From Mycolicibacterium sp. MU0053 (GTDB lineage Bacteria; Actinomycetota; Actinomycetes; Mycobacteriales; Mycobacteriaceae), in the NCBI RefSeq assembly GCF_963378095.1, contig NZ_OY726397.1:3968001-4032000 (forward strand): a stretch of 64,000 nt of DNA. The letters are read 5' to 3'. The notes below the pieces were generated by a model that ran no database searches, was not told the origin of the DNA, and was given only the letters and a program-made list of their open reading frames with translations. The translations under genes and the position numbers were made by a program. This document shows positions 1,146-27,354 of the stretch, piece after piece (position 1 is the first letter of the stretch; the number at the start of each line of letters is the position of its first letter).

Positions 1146-2012
1146 CTAGATTTCGTCCGGGCTGCGGACGTCACGGGTGATCAGGCTGCGCGCGGCGAGT
1201 TCGTCGTCGGACGGGTAATCCACCCCGATCATCGTCAGGCCCCGCGCCGGCGCCGCCGCGAAGGCACTGGACCGACTGCTGGCGGACAGCAGATCCACGG
1301 CCCACGCCGCCGGACGGCGCCCCTCGCCGACCGCAAGTAGCGCACCGACCAGCGAGCGCACCATGTTCCAGCAGAACGCGTCGGCGCTGACGTAGGCGGA
1401 CACCAGGTTGCCGTCGCGTTCCCAGTGCAGCCGCTGTAGCTCGCGAATCGTCGTCGCGCCGGGGCGGTGCCGGCAGAACGCGGCGAAATCGCGCAGGCCC
1501 AGCAACTCCGAGGCGGCCTGATTCATGGCCGCCACGTCCAGCGGTCGCGGCCACGGTGTGACGAACCGCGCCTGCTGCGGATCAACACCATAGGGCGCCA
1601 GCGACAACCGGTAGACGTAGTGCCGACGCAACGCCGAGAAGCGGGCATCGAAACCGGCTGGAGCCCGGACGATGTCGCGGACCCGGACATCCTCGGGCAG
1701 CAAGCGGCCCAGCCGTCGCACCAGCGGCAGGAATTCCGGCTCGCCGACCCGGGCGGTGCGCGGGTAGGCATGGTGCAGTGCATCGTCGGGGACATCGACG
1801 TGCGCGGTCTGTCCGGTGGCGTGCACGCCGGTGTCGGTGCGCCCGGCCGCACGCAGCACGACCGGCCCGCGAAACACCGTCGACAACGCCTCCTCGATCA
1901 CGCCGGCCACGGTGCGCTGCTCGCGCTGCGTGGCCCAGCCGGCGAAATCCGTGCCGTCATAGGCGATGTCGAGGCGAAGGCGAACAACGTTGTCGCTAGG
2001 CCTGCTCGTCAT
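1146..2012 (-). CDS. truA: tRNA pseudouridine(38-40) synthase TruA
   Basis: Isomerises uridine to pseudouridine at positions 38-40 of the tRNA anticodon arm. The 288-residue protein has the catalytic-Asp motif [10 protein letters not shown], the N-terminal [15 protein letters not shown] block and the late [14 protein letters not shown] segment. ATG at 2012 is the start. The frame stays open to 2489, but that extension is a fossil of the rplQ tail followed by sequence antisense to mceF. In M. tuberculosis, from memory, truA directly follows rplQ. Here it lies 166 bases downstream of mceF, so it may be read from the mce operon or from an unseen promoter of its own. Confidence 0.96.
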
Positions 2013-2107
2013 CCTCGGCGGAGCCTCATTCTGGTCTTCTGCGGCCTCGGTATCTTCCGTCGCGGGACCTTCGACCTCTTTCCGTTCGACAGCCGCCTGC
2101 GGGGCCC
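1996..2107 (-). pseudogene. Fossil of the rplQ 3' end next to truA
   Basis: Read on the minus strand this stretch encodes [14 protein letters not shown] and then a Glu/Ala-rich run. After a small frameshift it gives EDD, three further codons and a TAG. The intact rplQ 12.6 kb away ends [14 protein letters not shown], a Glu/Ala-rich run, EDDTKS and TAG, with the same nine bases CGACAACG(C/T) following the stop. The truA ATG lies inside this fossil, as expected if rplQ and truA once overlapped. It has no start codon of its own and codes for nothing functional. Confidence 0.8.
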
Positions 2108-2178
2108 GCAAAGAGTAGGCGCGTTCGCTGCATCTTGGCAAAGAATACTTGCTGACCACCGGGATGACCAAAATGCGT

Positions 2179-3567
2179 TTAGGGAGGCAGCAGCATGTTC
2201 TGCCACGACCTGTCCGTCCGGGCGCCCCTCGCCAGACCCGTGGCCGGGTCGTACGCGGCGGCAGGCAGCGCCGGCGGCTCGGGAGCTGCGGACTGCGGCG
2301 GCACGTGTGGCACGGCTTGGCCCGACAGCGTGGCGTTCGGGTCCCCCTTCCAGTTGAGGCCGTCGTTGAGCGGCACGTAGTGATCGTCGCTCTCGCACAT
2401 CGCGACCGTCGGTGCACGCTTACCCGGCACGGTCGCACAGGGTGTGTTGCGCGCACCCCGCACATTGAACTGCGAGTCCTGCGGCACACGGCAGTACAGG
2501 TCGCCCTCGGGGCGGTCCGGAGCGTCTTCGAAGACCGCCGAGCGTGCCTGCTGTGCAGGCAGAAAGCCGGTTGTGCACGGCGGCGGCAAGTTGATGTTGA
2601 GGTTGAAGCTCAGATACTGCCCTTTGTAGGCCTGTTGGGTGTTGAGGTTGGCCACCAGCCCCGCCTGTCCCGCGGACACCACCCCGGGAAACAGCACCAG
2701 CAACTGTTCGACGTTGTCGTGGTAGGTGACCGCCACCTGCCCCACGCTGACCAGATTGGCCAGCACGATGGGAAGCGTCGGCTTGACCCGGTCGACGAGC
2801 TGACGCACAGAACCGGCGGCCGCACCACCATTGTCGATCAGGTGAGCGACGGTCCGATCGTGGGTCTGCAGCTGCGTGGTCACCGTGGCGACCTGTGACG
2901 CCCACGCAGCGATGGCCTTCGACGTATCGCTCTGCGAATCCAGCACGGGCCGCGCCTGGTCGATCAGCCTGATGAGCGGATCGAGATGCCTGCGTGCCTC
3001 GATCGCGAGATCCGTTGACCCCTCGACGATCCGAGACAGCTCGGCTCCGAGCCCGCCGACCGCGGTGTAGGACTCGTCGATGACGGTCTTGAGATTGCCG
3101 CGCGGAATGGCCTGCAGCCCGGCGTTGGCGTCCGCAAGCAGCGTGTTGACGTCGGGCGGCACCGACGTGTCAGCAAGCGCGATGACGTCATTGTCACGCA
3201 ACGGCGGGGCATCGCCATTGCGCGGCAACAACGCTACGTACTGCTCGCCGATTGCCGACTGGCTGTGCACTTCCGCACGCAGATCGGAGGGTATCTCGAT
3301 GCCCCGCTTCAGCGACAACACGGCTTCGACCCCGCTCCGGGTGAGCCGCACGTTCTCGACCCGACCGACCTCGGTGCCGCGGTAGGTGACGTTGCCCCCG
3401 CTGTACAGCCCGCCGGTCTGCGGTAACTCCATGACGACCGTGTACCGGCCGACGCCGAACAGCTTGGCCGGCAACTTCATGAAGTGCAGGCCCATCAACC
3501 CCATCGCCAGCAACGCGATCACGGTGAAGACCGCGAGTTGGATCTGCATTCGCCCGTCCAGTCGCAT
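2179..3567 (-). CDS. Mce family protein MceF
   Basis: Last of six MlaD/Mce-domain proteins of a mycobacterial lipid importer; it would form part of the periplasm-spanning shuttle. It has 462 residues. An N-terminal membrane anchor lies at about residues 7-28 and is followed by the MCE domain ([19 protein letters not shown], then TYRGTEVG). A long helical region and a Pro-rich C-terminal tail follow. The ATG at 3567 overlaps the mceE stop by one base (TAATG), which argues for this start over the upstream in-frame candidates. The tail contains several Cys and Pro residues typical of MceF. It is the final mce gene before a 71-base spacer and the rplQ fossil. Confidence 0.92.
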
Positions 3568-4709
3568 TACGGCCCCTGATCCCATCGATACGGCACGACC
3601 AACGGATTGCCCTTTGTATAGGGGCTGGGGAACTGTCCGATCGTGCGGCCCCACTGCACTTCCAGCGCGGTCAGATCACCTTCCCACCGGGTACCGGTGA
3701 ACATTCCCGCGTCGATTCGGCTCAGGGTGAGGTCCGCGATCGCGGTCAGGTTGGCATAGTCGCCACGCTGCCACTTCTCGATCGTCTCGTTGGGAAACGG
3801 GAAGGTAAGGATGAGCGACAGGGCTCGGGTCATGCTCGGCCCGGCGTCGGCGAGCGACTCCAGCACCGGGCCGACGTCGTTGAGTTCCTTGACCAGGTTG
3901 TCCTTGGTCTGGTTGACCGAATCGACCGTCAACGCACTGAATATGCCGAACTGGTGGGCGGTTTCGACGAGGTTACGCCGCTGCCCGTTGAGTACGGCCA
4001 GCGCCTCGGGGACCGCCTGCAAGGCCTGGTCCAGAACCGGCCGCTGTGCGGCGAACTGCCCAGCCAGGTTGTTGAGGCTCTCCGTGGCGGTGATGATGTC
4101 GCCGGTTTGGTCGTTGACGTTGCGGGTGAATGTCTCGAGCTGACCGATCATACTGCGCAGGTCGTGCTCGCGGCCGCGGAAAGCGGTCGCGAGCGCCGCA
4201 GTGATGTCCTGCACCTGACCGAGTCCGCCACCGTTGAGCACCACGGACAGCGCCGCCAAAGTCTGCTCGGTGCTTGGGAATGCGTCACCACGCGACAGCG
4301 GAATAAGTGAGCCGGCGTGCAGTCTGCCCTTCGGCGCGGCGTCGGTCGGCGGCGCGAGCTCGATGTGCAATGAGCCCAGCAAACTCGTCAGACCTATTGT
4401 GACGGTGGAGTTCTCCGGTAGGTCGACGCTGCCGTCCAGCTGCATCGTCAGCAACGCGTGCCAGCCCTGGCGCTCGATCCTGGTGACCGCGCCGACGTCG
4501 ACGTCGCCGACACGGACCCGCGAGTTCGGCTGAATGTTGTTGACATCGGGCAGCTGCGCCTGGATCACGAACGACCCGGGGCCCCCGCCCGCCGTTCCGG
4601 GCATCGGCAACGAGTTCAGCCCTTGCCAGTCACCACAGCCAACGACCCCACCAGCGATGACGAGCGTCGCCCACGCCATCACCATTCGTCGCCACCAGAT
4701 GCGCATCAT
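3567..4709 (-). CDS. Mce family lipoprotein MceE (LprN-like)
   Basis: The lipoprotein member of the Mce shuttle, 380 residues. An Arg/Met-rich N-terminus (MMRIWWRRMVMAW) leads a hydrophobic segment ending in a lipobox VVGC, so the Cys at about residue 25 would be acylated and anchor the protein. The MCE domain follows (FVIQAQLPDVNNIQPNSRV), then a long helical region. The ATG at 4709 overlaps the mceD stop (ATGA), which fixes the start. Position five of six and the lipobox match the usual mceE slot. Confidence 0.93.
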   Translation of the reverse strand: MMRIWWRRMVMAWATLVIAGGVVGCGDWQGLNSLPMPGTAGGGPGSFVIQAQLPDVNNIQPNSRVRVGDVDVGAVTRIERQGWHALLTMQLDGSVDLPENSTVTIGLTSLLGSLHIELAPPTDAAPKGRLHAGSLIPLSRGDAFPSTEQTLAALSVVLNGGGLGQVQDITAALATAFRGREHDLRSMIGQLETFTRNVNDQTGDIITATESLNNLAGQFAAQRPVLDQALQAVPEALAVLNGQRRNLVETAHQFGIFSALTVDSVNQTKDNLVKELNDVGPVLESLADAGPSMTRALSLILTFPFPNETIEKWQRGDYANLTAIADLTLSRIDAGMFTGTRWEGDLTALEVQWGRTIGQFPSPYTKGNPLVVPYRWDQGP

Positions 4710-5971
4710 GCACCACCACCGTTGGTGGGGAGCATGATTCCTGACAGGCCGGCGGTGGGGTCCGTTGCGGTCGTTTGCGGCCCGTCCTCGGCGGGCGGTA
4801 CGAAATCGGGTCGCATCCGGTCCTCGCTGTAGGTGACCTCGTTGGGTCTGGCCTGCGCTCCGACGACCAGGTTCGCCCCGATCGGCGGGAAGTTGTACTG
4901 CCGGTTCTTGACGATCGGGGCCAGGTACTGCACGCACAGCTTCGCCGACTGCTCGGCACCACGCCGAGACGCCGCCTGGATTGCACCGCAGAGGAAGCTG
5001 ATCGGGTTCGCGAAGTTGTTGACGGCCAGCGCGCCGGTCAACGCGCCGTTGGCGGGCTCGAAGATGTTGTAGAAGTTCGCCACTGTGCCGGGGGCGATGT
5101 GCAGTGTCTGCTCGAGATCATCGAGGCTGGCGATCAACGTGTCGCTGATCGACGCCAGTTTGTCCGAGGCCGTGCCGATCGCTTCCCGATTGTCGTCGGC
5201 GAAGTCCTTGACATCGCCGATGACACCACCGAGATCCTCGATCGTCCGTGCCACCTTCTGCGGGTCGTCGGCGACCAACGAAGTCACCTCCGCCATGTTG
5301 CCGTTGAGCTGCTCGAGCAGGTCGGCACTGTCGTGCAGGGCGGAAACCAGGGTCGACAGATTGGTGAACGTCGAGAAGATATCGGAGCTGTGACCGCCCA
5401 GCGTCGCCAGTGCCTGCGACAGTCTGACGACGGTCTCGCGGATGCTGGCGCCTTGCCCGCGTAGGTTGTCGGCCGCGGTGTTGATCACCGCGCCCAGTGT
5501 GCTGACACCGCCTGGCTCGGTTGGTTGAAGCAGTCTGGTCAAGCGTTGCAGTTGAACTCGGACCTCGTCCCATTCCACCGGGACCGCAGTGCGCTCCTCC
5601 GGAATCACCGACCCGGTAGGCATCATCGACCCACCGGTGAATGCGGGGGTCAACTGAATCGACCTGCCGGTCACCAGTTGCGGCGCGAGAATCACCGCGT
5701 TCGCATCGACCGGTATCGGATACTTGCGGTCCACCCAGAACGTGATTCTGGCACGGGTGGGCTGCGGCTCGATGTGGTCGATGCGTCCCACCGGCACGCC
5801 GAGGATGCGCACGTCATCACCGGCGAACAGGCCGTTGCTGTTAGCGAAATAGGCGGTCACCCAGGTTTTCCCGATTCGATCGGAATGCCGTACCACCACA
5901 ACGAACCCGGCTGCGAGCGTCAACGCGAGTATGCCCGCCAGTGCTGTGCGCAACCAGCGCAGGCCGGTCAT
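4706..5971 (-). CDS. Mce family protein MceD
   Basis: Fourth Mce subunit of the lipid importer, 421 residues. A membrane anchor covers about residues 8-28 (ALAGILALTLAAGFVVVV). The MCE domain contains FANSNGLFAGDDVRILGVPV, a pattern shared with the other subunits. A helical shaft and a Pro-rich tail follow. It overlaps mceC and mceE by four bases each (ATGA), implying translational coupling and fixed stoichiometry. The substrate cannot be read from sequence. Confidence 0.93.
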   Translation of the reverse strand: MTGLRWLRTALAGILALTLAAGFVVVVRHSDRIGKTWVTAYFANSNGLFAGDDVRILGVPVGRIDHIEPQPTRARITFWVDRKYPIPVDANAVILAPQLVTGRSIQLTPAFTGGSMMPTGSVIPEERTAVPVEWDEVRVQLQRLTRLLQPTEPGGVSTLGAVINTAADNLRGQGASIRETVVRLSQALATLGGHSSDIFSTFTNLSTLVSALHDSADLLEQLNGNMAEVTSLVADDPQKVARTIEDLGGVIGDVKDFADDNREAIGTASDKLASISDTLIASLDDLEQTLHIAPGTVANFYNIFEPANGALTGALAVNNFANPISFLCGAIQAASRRGAEQSAKLCVQYLAPIVKNRQYNFPPIGANLVVGAQARPNEVTYSEDRMRPDFVPPAEDGPQTTATDPTAGLSGIMLPTNGGGA

Positions 5972-7215
5972 GGCTGCCCCGATTCCGGGGTGGCGTTGCC
6001 GGACAACGCGGGTGGGCCGGGCGGGGGACCACCCGGCAGCGGTGCGGGCAGCGGTGCACGGTACGGGTAACGAGGATCGCCCGGGTTGCCGGTGATGGCG
6101 TCGGGCACGGTCAGATGGGGCTCCCCACCCTGGCCGGTGCGCGGGTGGGGCACCGGCAACGCGGGTGTGCCCGGCTGACCTGTCGGGGGATCTGTCAGCT
6201 GCGATGGAGCCAGCACATTGGGGTCGAGGCCGAGGTCCGAGAACGCGGCGTCGACGAACGGCTGAACGAACTGTCCGGGAAGCAAGTTGACCACATATGC
6301 CTTGAAGAACGGCCCGGACGACAGCGACTCACCCAGCGACATCGCGTATTTGTTGAGCAATTTGACCGCTTCCCGAAACCGGTCCTTGCGATTGTCCAGA
6401 ATCGCCATGACTCCGTTGAGCTTCTCCAGTGCCGGCCGCAGCTGCTGGCGGTTCTCGGCGATGAACGCCTTCAATTGCGCTGCGGCCGAGGAGATGCTGG
6501 CCCAGATCTGGTTCACCGCGTCGCTTTGGGTGCGCAGTTGCGCCAACAGGTCGTTGGTGGCGGAAACCAGCCGGGCAACCTGATCGCTGCGGTGGGCCAG
6601 TACACCTGTCGCCTTGGCGGCATTGGTGAGCAGCGTGCGCAGCTGCGTGTCGCGGTCGTTGAGAGTCTGAGCGAAGCGCGCCACGCCGTGCACCGCCTCC
6701 CGAAGCTCCCCGGGGGTATCGGCGAAGGTGTCCGACAAGGTCGACAACGATTCCGAGAGTTCATCTGTGTCCAGGCCGCTGATGGTGTCGGCGAGATCGC
6801 CGAGCGCATCGGGCAGCTGATACGGCGAGCTGGTCCGGTTCATCGGGATGGGCCCGTCGAGGTCGCCTCCGCCCTGTGGAAGAACGGCAAGCATCTTGGT
6901 TCCCAGCAGGCTCTTCGTCTTGATTGCGGCCTCGGTCGCCTCGCCCATTCGGATGTTCTTGTCGACGCTGAAGCGCACCAGCACCGCGGCTCCGTCGAGC
7001 TCGATGGACGACACCCTGCCCGCCGGATATCCGGAGACCTCCACCGTGGCCCCGCTGAGCAGGCCTCCGGCGTCGGCGAAGTGAGCCGAGTAGGTCTTGA
7101 CCTGATTGACCAGGGGCAGATTCTGGTACTGCAGCGCCCCGACGACGACCGCGGAGACCACCACGACGCCGACGGCCCCGATCGCGAGCGGACTGCGCTC
7201 CGTGAAGGATCTCAT
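5968..7215 (-). CDS. Mce family protein MceC
   Basis: Third Mce subunit, 415 residues. The anchor SPLAIGAVGVVVVSAVVVGA lies near the N-terminus. The MCE domain includes FADAGGLLSGATVEVSGYPAG. A helical region follows, then an unusually Pro/Gly-rich C-terminal tail of about 80 residues, as is common in MceC. The ATG at 7215 overlaps the mceB stop (ATGA). The reading frame is open further upstream to 7305, but that start would bury 90 bases inside mceB. Confidence 0.92.
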   Translation of the reverse strand: MRSFTERSPLAIGAVGVVVVSAVVVGALQYQNLPLVNQVKTYSAHFADAGGLLSGATVEVSGYPAGRVSSIELDGAAVLVRFSVDKNIRMGEATEAAIKTKSLLGTKMLAVLPQGGGDLDGPIPMNRTSSPYQLPDALGDLADTISGLDTDELSESLSTLSDTFADTPGELREAVHGVARFAQTLNDRDTQLRTLLTNAAKATGVLAHRSDQVARLVSATNDLLAQLRTQSDAVNQIWASISSAAAQLKAFIAENRQQLRPALEKLNGVMAILDNRKDRFREAVKLLNKYAMSLGESLSSGPFFKAYVVNLLPGQFVQPFVDAAFSDLGLDPNVLAPSQLTDPPTGQPGTPALPVPHPRTGQGGEPHLTVPDAITGNPGDPRYPYRAPLPAPLPGGPPPGPPALSGNATPESGQP

Positions 7216-8240
7216 CTCGGTGCGCACCGCCCCGAGACCTGATCGGCGACCTTCACGTATACCGGCTGACCGCCTTTCCCGTTGAGCTTGAGCACGATTT
7301 CGCACAGGTAGAAGCTGAAGAAGTCGCCGTTGATGCCCTGTCGGCCCAGCGCCCGGTACTTGTCCGGCAGGGTGTTGATCAGGTTGTCGAGATACTCGTG
7401 GTCGGCCAGCGCGATGGCGGCCGTGCGGTCCGTTTCGCGGACCACCTTCGCGAACGGTTGGCGGGACTGCGCCAACAGGCCGGCCACCGAGCCTGCCGCG
7501 GCATCGGTGTACGCCAAGGCCGTTGAAATGTCGCCCTTGCGTTCGGCGAGCCCCTGCACCAGTTCGGACAACGACGTGACCGCCAGATCGAGGCGCTCGG
7601 TTTGACCGCCGAGGGATCCGAGCACGACGTTGAGGTTGTCGATGACCTGACCGATCAGCACGTCGCGATCGGCCAGGGTGTTGGTCACCATCGCCGCCTG
7701 TTGCAGAAACGATCCGATGGTGGCGCCCTGGCCCTGAAGGGCCGAGATCAACTGTCCACTCAGCGCGTTGACCTGATCGGGATCGAGCACCCGGAACAGC
7801 GGCCTGAACCCGCCGATGACGGAATCCAAGTCGAGGGCGGGCTGTGTCCGCGCGACCGGGATCGTTGCGCTGGGCTGCAGCGGGCGCAGTCCCCCGGCGC
7901 CCTCCTCCAGGGCCAGATACCGTCCGCCGATCACGTTGTCATATCGAACGGCCGCGCGGGTGCCCTCGGTGAGCAGGACCGAATCGTCGGTGGCGAACTC
8001 CACGCGCACGGTCGAGTCACCATTGAAGGAAATGTCTTGGATCGTGCCGACTTCCACCCCTGCGATGCGCACCATATCGTCGCTCTTCAATCCGGACACA
8101 TTGGTGAAATCGGCGAAGTACTTCTTGCCGCCACCGAAACGGAATTCGGCGAACACCGTCAGCAATGCGAAGGTCCCGAATGCACACACTGTCAGGAAAA
8201 TCAGCAGGCGCCATGCCGCGCCCTTGAAGTCGTCCTTCAC
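7212..8240 (-). CDS. Mce family protein MceB
   Basis: Second Mce subunit, 342 residues. A membrane anchor (LLIFLTVCAFGTFALLTVF) precedes the MCE domain with FTNVSGLKSDDMVRIAGVEVG. GTG at 8240 is chosen because an AGGAG lies eight bases upstream and the resulting length is normal for MceB. The open frame back to 8339 would overlap mceA by 68 bases. A conserved-looking C-terminal pair of Cys may form a disulfide. Overlaps mceC by four bases. Confidence 0.92.
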   Translation of the reverse strand: MKDDFKGAAWRLLIFLTVCAFGTFALLTVFAEFRFGGGKKYFADFTNVSGLKSDDMVRIAGVEVGTIQDISFNGDSTVRVEFATDDSVLLTEGTRAAVRYDNVIGGRYLALEEGAGGLRPLQPSATIPVARTQPALDLDSVIGGFRPLFRVLDPDQVNALSGQLISALQGQGATIGSFLQQAAMVTNTLADRDVLIGQVIDNLNVVLGSLGGQTERLDLAVTSLSELVQGLAERKGDISTALAYTDAAAGSVAGLLAQSRQPFAKVVRETDRTAAIALADHEYLDNLINTLPDKYRALGRQGINGDFFSFYLCEIVLKLNGKGGQPVYVKVADQVSGRCAPR

Positions 8241-8271
8241 GGTTTCGTCTCCTGAGCTCGGTGGGATCGAG

Positions 8272-9522
8272 TCATCCGCCCGGCCCCGGCGCGGCTCCGG
8301 GCAGGCACTGCCTGATGCTCGCCCGCTCGGGGTTCCCACGGGTCACCGGGAAGTAGTTAGCCCAACAGGGATGGCCGATACCGGGATTCGGCCGGATGTC
8401 CAGACCCGGTCCCCACCCGGTGTTCGTGATGAGCTGGCGGACCGGGAAGTTCTCGGTGGCGTCCGGTAGCGACCCGCAGCCGGGCTTCCCACCGGGACCT
8501 CCCTTGGCGGCGATGACGGGCAGGTTGTCCGGGTACTTGTACGGGTCGTTACCGAACAACAGGCCGACATCGAACTGAATCGAGCGGTCGTTGTCCCCAC
8601 CCCAAGCATCGAACCCGCCGTTGTCGAGAAACCACGTTGCGCCTTGTAGCCAGCAGGCGTACACCGGGCTGTACTTGTTCAGCAGGCCGGTCGTGGGCTC
8701 AAGAATGTTGACCAGACCCACCAGGCTGTCCTTGCTGGATGCCAGCAGTTCAGTTCCGGACCTGGCCAATCCAGTGGTGCTGAGCAGCAAGTGATCCAGA
8801 TTCGCTGCCCGGTCGACCACGGTCTTGCTGGTAGTACTCGCGCCGTCGAGGATGGTCACGATGTCATTGGCGACCGCGGCATAGGTGTCGTTGAAACGCC
8901 CGAAGGACTGCCAATCCTGCCGGATTGTCTCGTTGCGTTCGTTGAGCGCGGTGAGGACGACGTTCAGGTCGGTGGTGGCCTGCCCCATCCGTTCGCCCTG
9001 GCCGCGCACGCCGTCGGCGACGGCGGTGAGAACCGCGTTGAGCTTGGAAGGATCGATCATCCGCAGGAGGTCGGACAGGTTCTCGAAAATGGTGTTGACC
9101 TCGGTACTGACATTCGTTGACTGCAGCACCGCGCCGGCGGCCAACGGGGCAGGGCTCGGATCCGGCGGATACACGAGCTCGACGAACTTCGCGCCGAATG
9201 CAGTGGTGGCCTGAATTCGTGCCTGCACGTTCGCAGGGATGAACTGGGTCTGGTTCGGGTCAATCGCCACTTCCAGCTTGGCACGGCCGTCACCGCCACT
9301 GATGTTGCGGACCCGGCCCACCTCGACGCCGCGCAGCTTCACTTTCGCACCGGTCTCCATCACCAACCCGGATCGGTCCGAAGTCAAAGTGACTGGAACA
9401 TGAGAACTGAACGTGCCGCTGTAGACGCCGACGGTGACGAGAAGAAACGCGCCCACGACAGCCAGCAAGATGACGGTCCACCAAGCGTTGTGGATGCGGG
9501 CTTCGCCCTTGCGCGGCCCCAT
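8272..9522 (-). CDS. Mce family protein MceA
   Basis: First Mce subunit, 416 residues. The N-terminal anchor TVILLAVVGAFLLVTVGV is followed by the MCE domain (LTSDRSGLVMETGAKVKLRG) and a long helical segment. The C-terminal domain is Trp- and Gly-rich with four Cys. It begins one base after the yrbEB stop, at ATG 9522. With the two permeases it forms the standard yrbEA-yrbEB-mceABCDEF order. The ATPase MceG is normally encoded elsewhere and is not in this window. Confidence 0.93.
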   Translation of the reverse strand: MGPRKGEARIHNAWWTVILLAVVGAFLLVTVGVYSGTFSSHVPVTLTSDRSGLVMETGAKVKLRGVEVGRVRNISGGDGRAKLEVAIDPNQTQFIPANVQARIQATTAFGAKFVELVYPPDPSPAPLAAGAVLQSTNVSTEVNTIFENLSDLLRMIDPSKLNAVLTAVADGVRGQGERMGQATTDLNVVLTALNERNETIRQDWQSFGRFNDTYAAVANDIVTILDGASTTSKTVVDRAANLDHLLLSTTGLARSGTELLASSKDSLVGLVNILEPTTGLLNKYSPVYACWLQGATWFLDNGGFDAWGGDNDRSIQFDVGLLFGNDPYKYPDNLPVIAAKGGPGGKPGCGSLPDATENFPVRQLITNTGWGPGLDIRPNPGIGHPCWANYFPVTRGNPERASIRQCLPGAAPGPGG

Positions 9523-9523
9523 G

Positions 9524-10378
9524 TCAGCCCGCCAGGTTGAAGTTGCCAGACTGCCCGTAAACGGCCAGTGAGATCATCACGATTTCGATCGCGGCGACGA
9601 CCATCGATGTGCGCACCGCGCGGCCCACCGCCTCGCCGACCCCCGCGGGTCCACCGGACGCGGTGAAGCCGTAGTAGGTGTGCACGAGCATGATGACGAC
9701 TGTCATTGCCACACACTGGAAGAAGGACCAGATCAGGTCAGTCGGGTTGAGGAACGTCCCGAAGTAGTGGTCGTAGACCCCTGAACCCTGGCCGTAGATC
9801 ACGGTGGTGCCGAAGCGGGCCGCGAGAAACGCCATCATCACCGCCACGCAGTAGAGTGGGATGACCACGATCACCCCGGCGAGGACACGCGTCGCGGCGA
9901 GATAAGTGACGCTGCGGATTCCGATCACCTCGAGCGCGTCGATCTCCTCGTTGATCCGCATCGCACCCAACTGGGCGGTGGCGCCGGCGCCGATGGTGGC
10001 CGACAAGGCCACTGAGGTGGTGCCCGGCACGATCAGCCGGACGTTGAAGAACGCCGAGGCGAATCCGGTCAGCGCCTCGAAACCCACCGACGCAAGTTGG
10101 TTGTACCCCTGCACCGCAACCAAGGCGCCCGTTGTCATGGTCAAGAAGCCGACGATCGCGACAGTTCCACCGACAACGGCCAGGGCCCCGCTGCCCAACC
10201 CCATCTGCGCGATCAACCGCAACAACTCGGTCCGGTAGTGCGTGACGGCATCGGGGATTGCCGCCAACGTATTGGCGTAGAACCGAGCTTGGCCACCGAT
10301 ACGGTTCCAAGCGGCGACGAACTCGTCGACCACATGCGCAAGCCGTCCAAACGGCCTGCTGGGTGTCCCGACGCTCAT
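9524..10378 (-). CDS. YrbE/MlaE-type ABC permease, B subunit
   Basis: Integral membrane permease of the Mce importer, 284 residues, MlaE fold. It has about five to six membrane segments. The conserved cytoplasmic coupling region GAMRINEEIDALEVIGI is clear, as is the C-terminal GPAGVGEAVGRAVRTS block. Starts at ATG 10378, 12 bases after the yrbEA stop. It would pair with the A subunit and an MceG-type ATPase to drive lipid transport across the inner membrane. Confidence 0.94.
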   Translation of the reverse strand: MSVGTPSRPFGRLAHVVDEFVAAWNRIGGQARFYANTLAAIPDAVTHYRTELLRLIAQMGLGSGALAVVGGTVAIVGFLTMTTGALVAVQGYNQLASVGFEALTGFASAFFNVRLIVPGTTSVALSATIGAGATAQLGAMRINEEIDALEVIGIRSVTYLAATRVLAGVIVVIPLYCVAVMMAFLAARFGTTVIYGQGSGVYDHYFGTFLNPTDLIWSFFQCVAMTVVIMLVHTYYGFTASGGPAGVGEAVGRAVRTSMVVAAIEIVMISLAVYGQSGNFNLAG

Positions 10379-10390
10379 GGCACTGCCACC

Positions 10391-11164
10391 TCACGTGACC
10401 GTGAACTGGATACCGACCGCGGTGACGAGGATGTTGATCGCGAACAACACCGTGAAGGTGAAGACCACGGTCTCGTTGACCGCGTTGCCTACCCCCGCAG
10501 GTCCGCCGTTGACGTAAACCCCCTTGTAGCAGGCGATCAGTCCGGCTGCCAAGCCGAAGAGCGCCGCCTTGGCAAGCGACACGATAACGTCCCCGGCACC
10601 GGTGAGCAGGGTCAGCCCGGAGACGAACGCACCCGCCGAGACGTTCTGGATGTACACACAGAATACGAATGCGCCTGTCAGACCGACGATGATCACCGAG
10701 GCGGCCAGGGCAAGCGCCACGGTTGTCGCCGCGAGTACGCGGGGCACCACCAACGCTTGTATCGGATTGATACCCATGACCCGAAGCGCGTCGAGTTCGT
10801 CACGAATCGTACGGGCGCCGAGATCGGCGCACATCGCAGTGGCGCCGGCGCCCGAGACCACCAGCACCGTCACGATCGGCCCGATCTGGTTCACCGTTCC
10901 GATAGCGGCGCCCGTCCCCGAGAAGTCCGTCGCGCCAAACTCATTGAGCAGGATGTTGAAGGTGAACACCAGCAGGACCGAATACGGCATTGTCAGCATC
11001 AGCGCGGGTACCACCGATACTCGCGCGACGAACCAGGTCTGGATGACGTACTCGTGCCAGGCGAATGGCCGCTTGAACATCGAGACGAAGGTGTCCAACG
11101 ACATCGCGAATATTCGGCCGATCGCACGTACCGGCTTTGCTGCCGTCTGCGCGGCTATCACCAT
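10391..11164 (-). CDS. YrbE/MlaE-type ABC permease, A subunit
   Basis: First gene of the mce operon; MlaE-family permease with the coupling motif RDELDALRVMGINP and the C-terminal GPAGVGNAVNETVV block. I prefer ATG 11164 (257 residues), which has GAGAGG about 11 bases upstream and a length near that of other YrbEA proteins. An in-frame ATG at 11212 gives 273 residues but has no ribosome-binding site. The 143 bases back to the ferredoxin stop show no terminator, so the mce operon may be read from the P450 operon upstream, on the same strand. Confidence 0.9.
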   Translation of the reverse strand: MVIAAQTAAKPVRAIGRIFAMSLDTFVSMFKRPFAWHEYVIQTWFVARVSVVPALMLTMPYSVLLVFTFNILLNEFGATDFSGTGAAIGTVNQIGPIVTVLVVSGAGATAMCADLGARTIRDELDALRVMGINPIQALVVPRVLAATTVALALAASVIIVGLTGAFVFCVYIQNVSAGAFVSGLTLLTGAGDVIVSLAKAALFGLAAGLIACYKGVYVNGGPAGVGNAVNETVVFTFTVLFAINILVTAVGIQFTVT

Positions 11165-11307
11165 GGCGCCACCCACCTCTCCTCCGGACGGGTCGATGTG
11201 GATAAGTGACATTCGAGGGCGTAAGCGCCCCGCACATCTATGTCCATATCCAACGCTTTCAACTGATCCTCGTACTGATGCATTGCTTCTGCAGCGGCGG
11301 CTTGTCC

Positions 11308-11547
11308 TCAGTCACGTATCTTGGCGCTGTCGCCAGAAGCTAAGTGGTGCAACTTATTCGGAAACACCTGAAGAGCGCCCGACGGGCACAGCCCGACTGC
11401 GGCCCGAACCCGGGCCTGCTGGTCGTCGGGTACCTCCTCGAACGCGAGCACGACGACACCGCTCTCGTCCTGGTCGAAGAACCCGTCGGCGGTCATCACG
11501 CACATTCCGGCGGACATGCAGATCTCGCGGTCGGCGGTGACCCTCAT
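11308..11547 (-). CDS. 3Fe-4S-type ferredoxin, probable P450 electron donor
   Basis: A 79-residue soluble ferredoxin. Cluster ligands are seen in CMSAGMC near the N-terminus and in GLCPSGAL, with a non-Cys residue at one position of the first motif. This is the arrangement of mycobacterial 3Fe-4S P450 ferredoxins. It overlaps the SnoaL-like gene by four bases (ATGA) and is the third gene of the P450 operon. It would carry electrons from a reductase encoded elsewhere to the P450. Confidence 0.92.
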   Translation of the reverse strand: MRVTADREICMSAGMCVMTADGFFDQDESGVVVLAFEEVPDDQQARVRAAVGLCPSGALQVFPNKLHHLASGDSAKIRD

Positions 11548-11957
11548 CGGCTGAACGCATCCTGCGTCAAGGCGGAGTTCATGAAGTCACGAAAATGCAG
11601 CCAGCGCCCATTGCGAAGCGTGATGATGTGCGCGAATTCCGATTGCCATTCGTGGCCGTTGTCGAGCCTGCGGAAGCGCTGCCGACCCCAAACGGCGAGG
11701 TCGTCACCCTGGGCGATGAACTTCCACGGTTCCATTTCGACGATCTCGATGGTCTGCCCGACCCTGCTGAAGAACGTCATTGCGTCGGAGATGCCTCGGT
11801 AATCACCGGCATACGGGATCTTCTCAGTGCCGTAGTAAGTGATCCGCACATCTGGATCGAGGTACCGCAGAGCGGTATCCAGGTCGCCGGCAGGCACCGC
11901 GGCATAGATCGCCTTGGTCGCGTCGATGTTGCGCGCCTCTCCAGTGATGGCGGTCAT
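11544..11957 (-). CDS. SnoaL-like / NTF2-fold protein
   Basis: A 137-residue protein of the SnoaL-like, NTF2-fold superfamily, seen from its length and the pattern AIYAAVPAGDLDTALRYLDP at the start and FAHIITLRNGRW near the end. Members act as small isomerases, hydrolases or binding proteins on polyketide- or steroid-like substrates. ATG at 11957 overlaps the P450 stop; an in-frame GTG at 11966 is less likely. It sits between P450 and ferredoxin with four-base overlaps on both sides, so it probably acts on the P450 substrate or product. The reaction itself is unknown. Confidence 0.8.
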   Translation of the reverse strand: MTAITGEARNIDATKAIYAAVPAGDLDTALRYLDPDVRITYYGTEKIPYAGDYRGISDAMTFFSRVGQTIEIVEMEPWKFIAQGDDLAVWGRQRFRRLDNGHEWQSEFAHIITLRNGRWLHFRDFMNSALTQDAFSR

Positions 11958-13189
11958 GAGAGGCACAGGGGCAGGCGGACATACGCGTGCGTCAGCAAAC
12001 TGGCGGTCTGCTTCGTACCGGGGTCGTCGCTCAAGGCAATGTGCTCATACCGGTCGAGTACCGCGTTGAGCATCGCGGTCACCTCCAGTCGGGCCAGCGA
12101 GGAACCAAGGCAGAAGTGCAACCCATGACCGAGTGACAACTGCTTGCGCAGATTCGGCCGGTCGATGTCGAGTCGCGACGGGTCGGGAAAGATGGCGGGG
12201 TCACGGTTGGCCGAACCGAAGAACAACGCCACCCACTGCCCCTTGCGGATCAGCTTGTCCCCCACCTCGACATCGCGGGTGGCGATCCGGAACAGTCGCT
12301 GCGGAGGTCCGTCGAGCCGCATCGTCTCTTCGATGAAGACCGTCAGCAGTGAGCGGTCTGCGCGGATCCGCGCGGCGACCTCGGGTTCCCGCGCCAGGGC
12401 ATGCAACAGGTTGCCGATCAGAAACGTCGTGGTTTCACTACCCGCGACCACCAGCGTGACACAGAACCGGACGATCTCCTCGGGAGTCAGCCGCTGACCG
12501 TCCACCTCCGCGCGCAACAACGCCGAAATGAGGTCTTCGGCGTCGTCGACGTCTTCGCTTGTCGCCTGTTGAGCAACCCGGGCGGAGTGCTCGGCGAGTC
12601 GGGCAGCGAACGTCGCAACCATCTCCTCGTTGCTCGCGATGCGCTCCTCCGGAGTCAGAGACGAGGACAACATGAACGCGTTGGCCCAACGTCTGAACCG
12701 GACGTGGTCGCCTTCGGGCAGGCCCAGCAGGCGCACCATGGCCCTGGTGGGGATTTCGGCCGCGAACGTCATCACGTCCACTTCGCCCTCCCCGAGATCG
12801 TCAAGCAATCGCGGGATCAACTCGTTGAGCCAGCCGTCCAGCCGCTTAATGCGGCGCGGAGAGAACGCCTGCCCGACCAACTTTCGTTCCACCTCGTGTT
12901 TGGGCGGATCGGTGTTGACCAGCATCAGACTGGGGGCGGTGGAGGCCTCTTGGAGTGGGTCCCGCGACGAGAACGTGGCACTGTCGCGGGCGGCCTCGAA
13001 GACCTGGTCGTAGCGAAAAAGCGCCCACGCGGTGACGGGCTCGTCGGCACCGGGCACAGTACCCGGGGGCCAATCGCGGTAGCCCGCGACCGGGGAGGAC
13101 GCGCGCAGCTGGTCGTACAGCGGATAAGGGTCGGCGATGCCCTGTGGCGTCGTGAGCAACTCGAGTGCCGAAACCGTGGTCGATGACAT
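11954..13189 (-). CDS. Cytochrome P450
   Basis: A soluble bacterial P450, 411 residues from ATG 13189. A GTG six bases upstream is possible, but GAGG sits at better spacing for the ATG. Visible hallmarks are the I-helix AGSETT (residues 249-254), the ExxR pair E288 and R291, and the heme-binding loop GHGLHFCLG with ligand Cys360. The substrate cannot be assigned. It heads an operon with the SnoaL-like protein and the ferredoxin, lies upstream of an mce importer on the same strand, and faces a GAF-LuxR regulator. This suggests oxidation of a lipid or sterol-like compound brought in by the Mce system. Confidence 0.95.
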
Positions 13190-13226
13190 GTCCACTAGCC
13201 TCGGCCAACCACGTCAGCAAAGCGAT

Positions 13227-13255
13227 CCCCCGTTGTGGAGCACTTCTACCCCCGT
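13227..13255. promoter_or_regulatory. Paired CCCCCGT direct repeats in a divergent promoter region
   Basis: CCCCCGT occurs at 13227-13233 and again at 13249-13255, 22 bases apart, or about two helical turns. The spacing lets a dimer bind one face of the DNA. The second copy is also part of a weak palindrome (CCCCCGTATGAGGG, 13249-13262). The site lies in the 125-base gap between the divergent P450 operon and the LuxR-family gene, where a shared operator would be expected. Confidence 0.4.
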
Positions 13256-13314
13256 ATGAGGGCATTTTGCAGTTCATACCGCAAGCCCGGCGCGGCCGGA
13301 GGACAGTGAACACC

Positions 13315-14496
13315 ATGACCGTCACCGGCGACACACCCGACTCCGAGTCGGGCGCGACGTTGGCGGGCCATGCTGGCTGGGCGTCGCGTCCGGCGGTTGA
13401 AAGCGAGGCTGCCCGCCGCTACCGAGAGGTGTTTCGGGATTGGCGTATTGACCCTACCGACGATCCAATGGCCGCGGTGTCGGAAGCGATCGACACCAAC
13501 GCCACCGAGGTGCGAAACGCCTTGGAGGCGTGTGGCGACGAAGAGGCGATCATCGCACTGGAGTCAGTGCTCGACTTGTGTTCACTGGAACGGGAGTTGA
13601 TCGAGGACGGCGCGAGGCGGCGTACGTTCGCGCTGTTGCAGGTTCAAGAGGCCTTGAGCAAGTTGCGGGTGGTCGATGATGTTGCGACGATCGTCGACCG
13701 GGCCCCGCGAGAGCTGGTGGAGTCGTGTGGATTTGATCGCGCCGTGCTTTTCCGCGTGCATGAGGGCCGGATGTTCATGGAATCGGCGTACTTCGGCGAC
13801 GATCGCGAGGGCGCCGAGAAAATGGTCGCGTTCGCCCAATCCGTGGCGCCGCCGTTGGACCACATGTTGTTGGAGACACAGATGATCCGCCGTCACGCAC
13901 CGGCGATCGTGCGCGACGCCCGCAACGACCCCCGCGTCAACAGACCGATTATCGACTTCTCGATGACCCATTCCTATGTAGCGGCACCGGTAATGCCGAC
14001 GGGCAAGGTGATCGGCTTCCTGCATGCCGACCGGTTGTACTCAGGCCGACTGGTTGACGAGATCGACCGCGACACGGTGTGGGCGTTCGCGGAGGGATTC
14101 GGGTACGCCTACGAGCGCACGGTGCTGATGGAGAGGATGCGCCGCCAGCACGCGGAGGTGCGTAATGCGCTGGCGTCGGCGGACGAGGCGGCCCGTGCGT
14201 TACAAGACGCCGATCTTGACCTGCGCAAGATCGAACCGCTGGAGCGCAGTCCCGCGGCGAGGTCCCTGGCCGAGGTGCAGACGAGGGTGATGACGATGCT
14301 CACCCGCCGTGAGGTCGAGGTGCTTCGGCTGATGGCGGCCGGTCGCACGAACCAACAAATCGCCGATGAGCTGGTGATCTCGGCGGGCACCGTCAAGTCC
14401 CACGTGAAGCGGGTGCTGCGGAAATTGCATGCCACGAACCGTGCCGAGGCCGCTTCGGCATACGTGCGGTTGGCCAGTGTGCCCGACGTCGGCTGA
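13315..14496 (+). CDS. GAF-domain LuxR-family transcriptional regulator
   Basis: A 393-residue one-component regulator. A central region of about 150 residues (roughly 100-260) has GAF-like features, including [22 protein letters not shown]-terminal LuxR/FixJ helix-turn-helix spans about residues 330-390 ([20 protein letters not shown] and the recognition-helix region [14 protein letters not shown]). No receiver domain is seen. ATG at 13315 has GGAGGA eleven bases upstream; earlier in-frame starts would overlap the P450 gene. It is transcribed divergently from the P450 operon and probably controls it, and perhaps the mce genes, in response to a small ligand. Confidence 0.9.
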
Positions 14497-14549
14497 GGCG
14501 ATACCAAGGCGCAACCGCACGGCGGCGGCCAGGCGGCGATCTGACGGAA

Positions 14550-14581
14550 CATGCCCGCCACCGGAATCAGTGACGGGCATG
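14550..14581. terminator. Bidirectional hairpin terminator between luxR-type gene and rplQ
   Basis: CATGCCCGCCAC pairs with a near-perfect complement ending CGGGCATG: about 12 base pairs including one G-T, with a loop of about 8. No T-run follows, as is usual in mycobacteria. It sits in the 100 bases between two convergent genes and can end transcripts from both. Confidence 0.7.
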
Positions 14582-14583
14582 CT

Positions 14584-14613
14584 CACAGCGTTGTCGCTAG
14601 GACTTGGTGTCAT
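14584..14613 (-). pseudogene. Fossil of the truA 5' end overlapping the rplQ stop
   Basis: In the +2 frame over the rplQ stop the minus strand reads [10 protein letters not shown], against [10 protein letters not shown] at the start of the real truA. The two sites share 13 identical bases (CCTAGCGACAACG). This is the partner scar to the rplQ fossil beside truA. It is not a working gene; sequence after the tenth codon is unrelated to truA. Confidence 0.65.
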
Positions 14614-15148
14614 CCTCGGCGTCAGCCTCGGGCGCCTCGGCCTCGGTGGCCTCGACCTCGGTGGCCTCGGCCTCTTCGGCGGTGGGGCCTTCGGCCTCTT
14701 CCGGCTCGACGGCCGCCTGCGGCGCCGCCGCGGCCGCCACCGGTTGCGCGGCCGCCGAGCGGCGGGCGCGGTCGGCCTCCGAGGTCACGGTCTTCTCCCG
14801 CACCAGCTCGATGACGGCCATGGGTGCATTGTCACCCTTGCGCGCCTCGACCTTGATGATGCGCAGGTAGCCACCGTTGCGGTCGGCGTAGAACGGCGCG
14901 ATCTCGGCGAACAGCGCGTGCACCACGTCCTTGTCGCGGATCTTCTTCATCACCTGACGCCGGTTGTGCAGCGAACCCTTCTTGGCGTGGGTGATCAGCT
15001 TCTCCGCGTACGGCCGCAACGCCCGCGCCTTCGGCTCGGTCGTCTTGATCCGGCCGTGCTCGAACAGCGCGGTGGCCAGGTTGGCCAACAGCGCCTGCTG
15101 GTGCGAGGACGACCCGCCGAGGCGAGGCCCCTTTGTGGGCTTGGGCAT
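14597..15148 (-). CDS. rplQ: 50S ribosomal protein bL17
   Basis: Large-subunit protein near the exit tunnel. The first 120 or so residues are canonical ([20 protein letters not shown], then [20 protein letters not shown]). The protein is 183 residues, because of a roughly 60-residue Ala/Glu tail that ends EDDTKS and is absent from bL17 of E. coli. Start has AGGAG upstream. Last gene of the alpha operon, followed by a hairpin terminator. truA, its usual downstream partner, has been displaced by the mce block. Confidence 0.97.
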
Positions 15149-19177: not shown

Positions 19178-19207
19178 GTCACCCGCCACCGCCAGAAAGG
19201 TCGACCG

Positions 19208-26658: not shown

Positions 26659-27264
26659 ATGGCGTTCCGTGAACTGCGCGTCCCGGGCTCCTACGAGATC
26701 ACCCCGGCGCTGCACACCGACGAGCGCGGGACGTTCTTCGAATGGTTCGCCGATGCGGAGTTCACCCGGCTCGCCGGGCACCGCCTCGACCTGAAGCAGG
26801 CGAACTGCTCGGTGTCCTCGGCCGGGGTGCTGCGCGGCCTGCACTTCGCGCAACTGCCGCCCGGCCAGGCCAAGTACGTCACCTGCGTGCGGGGCTCGGT
26901 CTTCGACGTGGTTGTCGACGTCAGGGTCGGATCGCCGACCTACCGCCAGTGGGACGCGGTGCAACTCGACGACCGCAGCCGCAACTCGGTGTACCTGTCC
27001 GAGGGACTCGCGCACGGCTTCCTGGCGCTCGAGGACGACTCCACGGTGATGTATCTGTGCTCGGCGGGCTATGACCCGCAGCGCGAGCACACCATCTCCC
27101 CCACCGACCCCGCGATCGGGATCGCCTGGCCGGAGACGGTTTTCGGCACCAGCCGGGTGATCTCGGAGCGTGATGCCGCCGCGCCCAGCCTGGCCGGGGC
27201 CGAGGCGGCCGGGCTGCTGCCGACCTGGGACGAGACCCGCGACTTCATCGCCGGCCTGCGCTGA
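26659..27264 (+). CDS. rmlC: dTDP-4-keto-6-deoxyglucose 3,5-epimerase
   Basis: Third enzyme of dTDP-L-rhamnose synthesis; a cupin-fold epimerase of 201 residues. The catalytic His is in GVLRGLHFAQLPPGQAK, and conserved FEWFADAEF and GLAHGFLALED blocks are present. Separated from rmlB by one base. Expected partners rmlA and rmlD are not in the window. Confidence 0.96.
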   Translation: MAFRELRVPGSYEITPALHTDERGTFFEWFADAEFTRLAGHRLDLKQANCSVSSAGVLRGLHFAQLPPGQAKYVTCVRGSVFDVVVDVRVGSPTYRQWDAVQLDDRSRNSVYLSEGLAHGFLALEDDSTVMYLCSAGYDPQREHTISPTDPAIGIAWPETVFGTSRVISERDAAAPSLAGAEAAGLLPTWDETRDFIAGLR

Positions 27265-27304
27265 GACCGTTCTGCGGCAGGGTCTTGCGCATCCGCATCC
27301 CCAA

Positions 27305-27324
27305 ATACTAGGATATGCAAGTAT
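27305..27324. promoter_or_regulatory. Inverted repeat ATACT-N10-AGTAT upstream of mmsA
   Basis: Two perfect five-base arms, ATACT (27305-27309) and AGTAT (27320-27324), flank ten bases and overlap a TANNNT-type element (TAGGAT, 27309-27314). It lies 31 bases before the mmsA start. Such an overlap suits repression of the valine-catabolic operon. Confidence 0.3.
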
Positions 27325-27354
27325 CTCTGCTCCAACTCCCGCGTAGGACGTCTC

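What the first reader, a model, noticed from the sequence alone, without database searches (positions are those of the whole stretch)
1985..14613. Reciprocal rplQ/truA scars show that a 12.5 kb mce-P450 block split an overlapping gene pair
Beside truA lies a decayed rplQ 3' end (1996-2107); over the rplQ stop lies a decayed truA start (14584-14613, [10 protein letters not shown] against [10 protein letters not shown]). Each site thus holds one live and one dead half of the same rplQ-truA junction, and the two copies are direct repeats sharing CCTAGCGACAACG. This is what a single-crossover (Campbell-type) integration of a circle carrying its own rplQ-truA junction would leave. It would date the mce block as an insertion into the alpha operon. 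Gene order in M. tuberculosis and M. smegmatis (rplQ next to truA) is recalled knowledge; the repeat is seen directly.
Basis: partly seen in the sequence, partly recalled or inferred. Interest (0 to 1): 0.8.

Follow-up and report, generated by a model that had tools for sequence, protein, structure and literature searches.

The report
Lipid-import operon wedged into ribosomal operon
In one mycobacterium a borrowed lipid-import gene cluster has split two neighbouring housekeeping genes, and the leftovers at its edges suggest that a ribosomal-protein operon was briefly duplicated and then eroded to a bare promoter that may now drive the detached gene.

Summary
A rplQ-truA junction stands at each end of a 12.5-kb mce-P450-luxR block, each copy half live, half dead. 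In 144 of 145 other genus genomes with both genes they are adjacent; the exception is split by contigs. Sister genome G012 has the empty site.

Two findings change the story. (1) In G256, G232 and G068 the block lies behind rmlC, across the same ribosomal (alpha) operon, in the same orientation; this block is too similar to theirs for vertical descent. (2) The 77 bp between mceF and the dead rplQ tail is a foreign-type alpha-operon (infA) promoter: 87% to G104 and G138, poor against the genome's own. Both junction copies look native.

Best reading: donor DNA with alpha-operon sequence and block recombined on one side; its luxR end was joined to truA codon ~17 of a native copy; the extra alpha operon was deleted down to its promoter, which may now drive truA.

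The parts
1146..2012 (-). truA, live; the ATG at 2010-2012 lies inside the dead rplQ tail
   Evidence: Pfam PF01416, NCBIfam TIGR00071; 84% to G012
1996..2107 (-). dead 3' end of rplQ, native type
   Evidence: best of 123 tails is the genome's own live rplQ tail, 111 against 81 for the next; G104 77, G012 only 61 (rank 36)
2101..2177 (-). foreign-type alpha-operon (infA) promoter; TTTTGG at 2168-2173, TATTCT at 2142-2147
   Evidence: 87% over 78 columns to the infA-upstream gap of G104 and G138, 86% G339; own infA upstream scores 36 against 110; strict motif in 73 of 89 infA upstreams
2179..3654 (-). mceF; its stop codon abuts the promoter remnant
3567..4937 (-). mceE
   Evidence: Pfam MlaD
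4706..5971 (-). mceD
   Evidence: Pfam MlaD
5968..7305 (-). mceC
7212..8339 (-). mceB
   Evidence: Pfam MlaD
8272..9522 (-). mceA
9524..10378 (-). yrbE-type permease B; 96-97% to G256
   Evidence: Pfam MlaE
10391..11212 (-). yrbE-type permease A
   Evidence: Pfam MlaE
11544..11966 (-). SnoaL-like protein
   Evidence: Pfam PF12680
11954..13195 (-). cytochrome P450; 94% to G245
   Evidence: Pfam PF00067
13165..14496 (+). GAF-LuxR regulator; 91% to G256
   Evidence: Pfam GerE and GAF
14497..14613 (-). dead truA 5' end, joined to the luxR stop codon at a place matching codon ~17 of live truA; native (G012-like) type
14547..14584 (-). hairpin after rplQ, kept here and absent on the truA side
   Evidence: similar inverted repeats between rplQ and truA in many relatives
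14597..15148 (-). rplQ, live
   Evidence: Pfam PF01196
18533..18563 (-). genome's own infA (alpha-operon) promoter, same motif, different type
27262..27354 (+). rmlC-mmsA gap: here G256, G232, G068 hold the block; empty here and in G012

Best explanation
The 12.5-kb mce-P450-luxR block was acquired horizontally after the split from G012. A donor fragment held part of the alpha operon, its infA promoter and the block. One end recombined by homology inside the recipient's alpha operon. The other end, at the luxR stop codon, was joined without homology to truA codon ~17 of a native copy of the chromosome. That made a tandem partial diploid: truA - junction - rplQ - alpha operon - donor promoter - block - | truA start - junction - rplQ - native alpha operon. 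The copy next to truA was then deleted from inside rplQ to just below the donor infA promoter, leaving promoter plus dead rplQ tail. truA, cut off from its old operon, is now preceded by this spare alpha-operon promoter and is probably transcribed from it. The hairpin was lost in front of truA and kept behind rplQ. Shown: both junction scars, the promoter homology, the closest matches of each scar, the foreign affinity of the block, the empty sister site. Inferred: the duplicated alpha operon, the order of steps, transcription of truA from the promoter.
For: Promoter at 2101-2177: apart from itself, hits at E below 1e-16 only in G104, G138 and G339 of 396 genomes, in all three upstream of infA; scores 110/110/104 against maxima of 300 shuffles 34/32/28; own promoter 36. 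Dead rplQ tail nearest to the genome's own (111, next 81, of 123). Dead truA start nearest to G012 (82, next 72). Block behind rmlC across the alpha operon in G256, G232, G068, behind o24777 in G245, same orientation. Block too similar for descent: G000-G245 path 0.12 for SnoaL+P450+LuxR against 0.26 for core proteins of this locus. G012 has no luxR hit at E 1e-110 and an empty site. M. smegmatis conjugation gave donor tracts averaging 33.8 kb, and 11 partially diploid regions in two transconjugants (PMC3706393, passages).
Against: The duplicated alpha operon is not seen; only its promoter and the rplQ tail remain. If the donor had the gene order of G256, a second deletion (o20734 to rmlC) is needed between promoter and mceF. 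None of G104, G138, G339 has the luxR gene at E 1e-110, so no sampled genome joins that promoter type with the block. The dead rplQ tail is not especially close to G012 (61, rank 36 of 123) while G104 ranks third (77); its native type rests on the match to the genome's own tail. CCGTCAGA, shared by the dead truA start and G012, also occurs in one other tail, L060. In published HFIR most illegitimate joints have 3-10 bp of microhomology and the product a deletion (PMC3240628); here overlaps look like 1-2 bp and the result is a duplication. The promoter type does not follow the species tree (G245, close to G104, differs), so the donor cannot be named.
Confidence: 0.6

Rival explanations
1. Campbell-type integration: a linear donor fragment running from truA codon ~17 through the alpha operon and block to the luxR stop was closed into a circle and integrated by one crossover in the alpha operon or rplQ. 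The gene order produced is the same; one alpha operon was then lost.
For: Topology fits all joints. In E. coli conjugation 56 of 60 selected clones gave a PCR product diagnostic of a duplication; 14 sequenced had 109-950 bp duplicated, read by the authors as one crossover with re-circularised DNA; the other 4 of 60 appeared to be HFIR (PMC3240628, passages).
Against: The truA start and junction beside rplQ would then be donor DNA, yet they are nearest to G012, while the promoter is nearest to G104, G138 and G339, whose junctions lack the CCGTCAGA stretch.
Confidence: 0.2
2. Capture of donor DNA at a staggered break: a piece in which the block already abutted an infA promoter was ligated into a broken rplQ-truA junction, and fill-in copied about 230 bp on both sides.
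For: Needs no alpha-operon duplicate; both junction copies would be native, as their best matches suggest.
Against: Unlikely that a random insertion lands at the end of the operon whose promoter it carries; landing within 25 kb of that operon in the same orientation has a rough chance of 0.5% (50 kb of 5.45 Mb, halved; my arithmetic). In the four genomes where the block lies near the alpha operon it does not abut infA.
Confidence: 0.13
3. Vertical history: the block was ancestrally beside rmlC, the region was tandemly duplicated, and different parts were lost.
For: Block beside rmlC in three relatives.
Against: G000 and G012 share the empty rmlC-mmsA gap; block proteins are far closer to G245/G256 than core proteins are; the promoter is foreign-type.
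Confidence: 0.05
4. Site-specific integration of a mobile element at the rplQ 3' end.
For: A displaced gene tail is typical of such islands (recalled).
Against: No integrase, recombinase or transposase among the block genes scanned. Against 72,556 plasmid records a megablast of the block matched 2, over 8% at 73% (this mode misses DNA under roughly 85%), and LuxR by tblastn matched none over 80% of its length, best identity 41%.
Confidence: 0.02

Closest known systems
Homology-facilitated illegitimate recombination (HFIR)
   Same: One homologous end and one non-homologous joint bring in foreign DNA
   Different: Published HFIR gives inserts of about 1 kb with a deletion and mostly 3-10 bp microhomology (PMC3240628, passages); here a 12.5-kb insert with a duplication and joints of about 1-2 bp overlap
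Single-crossover (Campbell) integration of re-circularised conjugated DNA
   Same: Duplication of the homologous stretch on both sides of the insert
   Different: Junction copies both have native best matches while the promoter between them is foreign-type
Distributive conjugal transfer in Mycobacterium smegmatis
   Same: Large chromosomal tracts move between strains; partially diploid regions are reported (PMC3706393, passages)
   Different: Here transfer is between species and the product is an ectopic insertion, not an in-place replacement; this route was not tested here
Mycobacterial mce operons (two YrbE, six Mce)
   Same: Complete set, uninterrupted frames
   Different: Placed between rplQ and truA; preceded by a SnoaL-like protein and a P450, with a divergent GAF-LuxR gene

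Membership tests
mce operon | two MlaE/YrbE permeases followed by six MlaD/Mce proteins, frames open | tested here: met
   Pfam for all eight; NCBIfam TIGR00996 above cut-off for the three Mce proteins scanned; TIGR00056 matched both permeases below cut-off
Campbell-type integration | direct repeats at both ends, reciprocal live and dead halves | tested here: met
Campbell-type integration | one junction copy of donor type in line with the rest of the imported DNA | tested here: inconclusive
   rplQ tail nearest the genome's own, truA start nearest G012, promoter nearest G104/G138/G339: against it, but the sequences are short and were ranked by score, not by tree
HFIR | one end by homologous recombination | tested here: inconclusive
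   the stretch that would hold the crossover is gone; only promoter and rplQ tail remain
HFIR | illegitimate joint with 3-10 bp microhomology (most cases) | tested here: not met
   luxR stop and truA codon 17 overlap by about 1-2 bp by eye
HFIR | loss of recipient DNA at the joint | tested here: not met
   rplQ and truA both present; the junction is duplicated
integrase-borne genomic island | integrase or other recombinase gene in the element | tested here: not met
   none in Pfam scans of the block genes
plasmid-borne block | same gene set on known plasmids | tested here: not met
   (72,556 records)
alpha-operon (infA) promoter | TTTTGG, 18-20 bases, TANNNT, then a conserved start region, as upstream of infA | tested here: met
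   TANNNT as mycobacterial -10 motif in PMC3898074 (passages)
alpha-operon (infA) promoter | starts transcription into truA | not testable with these tools
   needs RNA data; the generic sigma-70 scan found none on either strand of 1900-2400

The most novel reading that the evidence does not exclude
Interspecies transfer made a cell briefly diploid for the essential alpha ribosomal operon; one copy then eroded to a bare promoter, and this spare promoter rescued truA, so that an insertion into a nearly invariant operon end was tolerated. Promoter capture by transient operon duplication would be a general way for foreign clusters to enter essential operons.
Probability: 0.5. Interest if true: 0.6.

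Novelty: new variant of a known kind. Interest (0 to 1): 0.45.

Why it matters
Splitting rplQ from truA is rare: in 144 of 145 other genus genomes with both genes they are adjacent and the last cannot be judged. The three scars keep a readable record of how a foreign cluster may have got in without a mobile element, and suggest how the stranded gene kept expression. It makes a testable prediction: truA is read from a spare alpha-operon promoter. It also suggests that the position of an mce cluster can shift across an operon between species by transfer and duplication rather than by transposition.

Tried and rejected
Rejected: chance repeat; island with integrase; known plasmid; vertical duplication and loss. 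I first took the 70 bp behind mceF for meaningless filler: it has no second copy in its own genome and nothing above shuffles in a local scan of flanks; the search of 396 genomes showed a promoter.

Led nowhere: a breakpoint in synonymous divergence between G000 and G012. truA and two cutinases show 0.42-0.47 at fourfold sites against 0.18-0.34 from rplQ to o30062, a stronger contrast than in the control pairs, but much of the left flank is high, so no crossover can be placed. Base composition of the block does not stand out. The sigma-70 scan found no promoter; it demands TATAAT-like sites. No paper of the library holds rplQ, truA, mce and Mycobacterium together, nor infA, rplQ, operon, Mycobacterium and transcription start sites.

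Error of mine: truA was cut out of frame; that tree was discarded and redone. The core trees use only genes near this locus; those had the quick method.

Not done: transcription; a full sample of G000's nearest kin (the genus samples are draws of 148 and 396 genomes; the named scan, kept 80 of 546 and leaves out the window's own genome); a test of all 70 luxR-bearing genomes for block position. truA and luxR were placed in eight (G256, G245, G324, G068, G207, G232, G064, G125); others in both samples were compared by eye: no further close pair, but genes on different contigs cannot be judged.
Full report
WHAT WAS CLAIMED. Two copies of a rplQ-truA junction flank a 12.5-kb mce-P450 block, each half live and half dead; a circle integrated by a single crossover was proposed.

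THE REPEAT IS REAL. 1984-2107 aligns with 14584-14726 at score 69; the best unrelated stretch of the window scores 41. A search of the whole genome found no third copy. truA, rplQ, six Mce proteins, two YrbE permeases, a SnoaL-like protein, a P450 and a GAF-LuxR regulator are identified by Pfam. 'Alpha operon' for infA-rpsM-rpsK-rpsD-rpoA-rplQ is a recalled name; the order itself is seen.

THE SITE IS EMPTY IN RELATIVES. truA and rplQ were each found in 146 of 148 genus genomes, the same 146. Comparing all coordinates by eye, the two matches lie within 200 bases of each other in 144; in the window's genome they are 12.6 kb apart, and in G041 they lie on different contigs. On loci in hand, 108 of 110 (30 unnamed, 80 named, some apparently the same species) have rplQ next to truA; the two without are the window's own genome and G041. 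In some searches nine of ten genomes, all but G000, are adjacent (some of the nine were also in the first sample). G012, the nearest sampled relative (truA 84%), is collinear on both sides and lacks the block here; it has no luxR match at E 1e-110.

WHERE THE BLOCK LIVES ELSEWHERE. The LuxR gene has matches in 70 of 396 genus genomes, the window's included. In G256, G232 and G068 the whole block lies directly behind rmlC, its luxR end 22-24 kb from truA on the other side of the alpha operon, in the orientation it has here; in G245 it lies behind o24777. In G207, G125 and G064 luxR is far from truA. In G000 and G012 rmlC is followed at once by mmsA, with similar intergenic sequence.

THE BLOCK WAS TRANSFERRED. 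YrbE-B is 97% identical to G256 and the P450 94% to G245, while truA is 70-71%. Tree paths G000-G245 are 0.12 for SnoaL, P450 and LuxR and 0.26 for core proteins of this locus. For comparison, G256-G245 is about 0.13 or slightly more (my sum over the branches printed, where weak forks are collapsed) and 0.12. The Mce and YrbE part groups with G256 (SH-aLRT 100). In the core tree G000 and G012 form a pair outside the clade of nine that holds G256, G245 and G104 (95/99); the branch that adds G125/G039 to that clade has 80/85.

THE SCAR BESIDE rplQ. Behind the live rplQ stop the sequence reads on as a truA start, in frame, up to 14497, where it meets the luxR stop. It keeps the hairpin. The best match among the compared junctions is G012 (82, next 72; the genome's own truA side, which lost the hairpin, 27). 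Both carry CCGTCAGA behind the hairpin, which of the other 121 tails only L060 also holds. This copy looks native.

THE SCAR BESIDE truA. The dead rplQ tail at 1996-2107 matches the genome's own live tail best (111, next 81, of 123 tails). G104 scores 77 (third), G012 61 (rank 36): the tail evolves fast, and the reading 'native' rests on the match to the own copy. A search of 396 genomes with 1984-2107 gave the own rplQ as second-best place (E 2e-9); 12 other genomes gave matches of 22-64 bases to parts of it, the best (G082, 36 bases by the stop, E 2e-6) a little better over those bases than the own copy, though not in the alignment. Its hairpin is gone.

THE THIRD SCAR. 2100-2185 matched five other genomes at E 0.01 or better: G104, G138 and G339 at E 1e-17 to 1e-19 (2101-2177), and two short weak matches. 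In the three the place is the gap upstream of infA. Alignment scores are 110, 110 and 104 (maxima of 300 shuffles 34, 32, 28), 50 for G245, 33-38 for G256, G232, G068, 34 for G012 and 36 for the genome's own infA upstream, the last ones only just above their shuffles. All nine infA upstreams compared and the truA side share TTTTGG, 18 to 20 bases, TANNNT. A strict form is in 73 of 89 distinct infA upstreams, the 16 others showing by eye variants of the first hexamer, and in 7 of 2000 random 450-base stretches of the window. TANNNT is the -10 motif at 73% of primary starts in M. tuberculosis, without a conserved -35 (PMC3898074, passages). So mceF is followed by a foreign-type alpha-operon promoter that points at the dead rplQ tail and truA.

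MECHANISM. Promoter and block are foreign-type; the two junctions have native best matches; the infA-to-rplQ body is missing between promoter and rplQ tail. The simplest history is a one-sided homologous import through the alpha operon with an illegitimate joint (luxR stop to truA codon ~17) on a native copy, giving two alpha operons, and then deletion of the redundant one. Partially diploid regions and long donor tracts are reported after mycobacterial conjugation (PMC3706393, passages). A re-circularised fragment with one crossover gives the same order, and in the one E. coli study that I looked into it was the commoner source of such duplications (PMC3240628, passages); against it stands the G012-like junction beside rplQ. 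The sequences are short and a closer set of relatives could move the balance.

CONSEQUENCE. truA, in relatives the next gene behind rplQ, now has a copy of an alpha-operon promoter 130 bases upstream (2142 to 2012) and has lost the hairpin; rplQ keeps the hairpin facing the convergent luxR. Expression is inferred, not shown.

NOVELTY. No paper in the library joins rplQ, truA, mce and Mycobacterium. The parts of the mechanism are known; this combination, with a spare ribosomal promoter left as scar, was not seen in the listings of the searches made, which are few.

Noticed in passing
window 19178-20665: A flotillin-like gene (NCBIfam FloT match below cut-off) lies between infA and o20734 in G000 and G012; no match to it was found in the fetched alpha-operon regions of G256, G232, G068, G104, G138 and G339, where infA and o20734 are direct neighbours.
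   Followed up: partly
L145 (G245) and L181, L182, L183 (G104, G138, G339): No rmlB or rmlC match lies behind o24777 in these genomes; in G245 the mce block stands there instead.
   Followed up: no
L154, L157, L158: In G256, G232 and G068 about 15 kb of further sequence lies between luxR and mmsA; in G256 it holds long open frames that were not identified.
   Followed up: no
window 2179-14496 against L144 and L145: The block is a mosaic: Mce, YrbE and LuxR proteins are nearest to G256 (78-97%), the P450 and the SnoaL-like protein to G245 and G324 (87-94%) among the genomes.
   Followed up: partly
G000 whole genome: The genome holds 15 MceA-like matches at E 1e-60 or better, second only to G018 (18) among the 37 genomes with matches.
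   Followed up: no
infA upstream of G104, G138, G339 against G245: The alpha-operon promoter type does not follow the species tree: G245 groups with G104 and G138 in core proteins but scores 50 against their 110 with the truA-side promoter.
   Followed up: no
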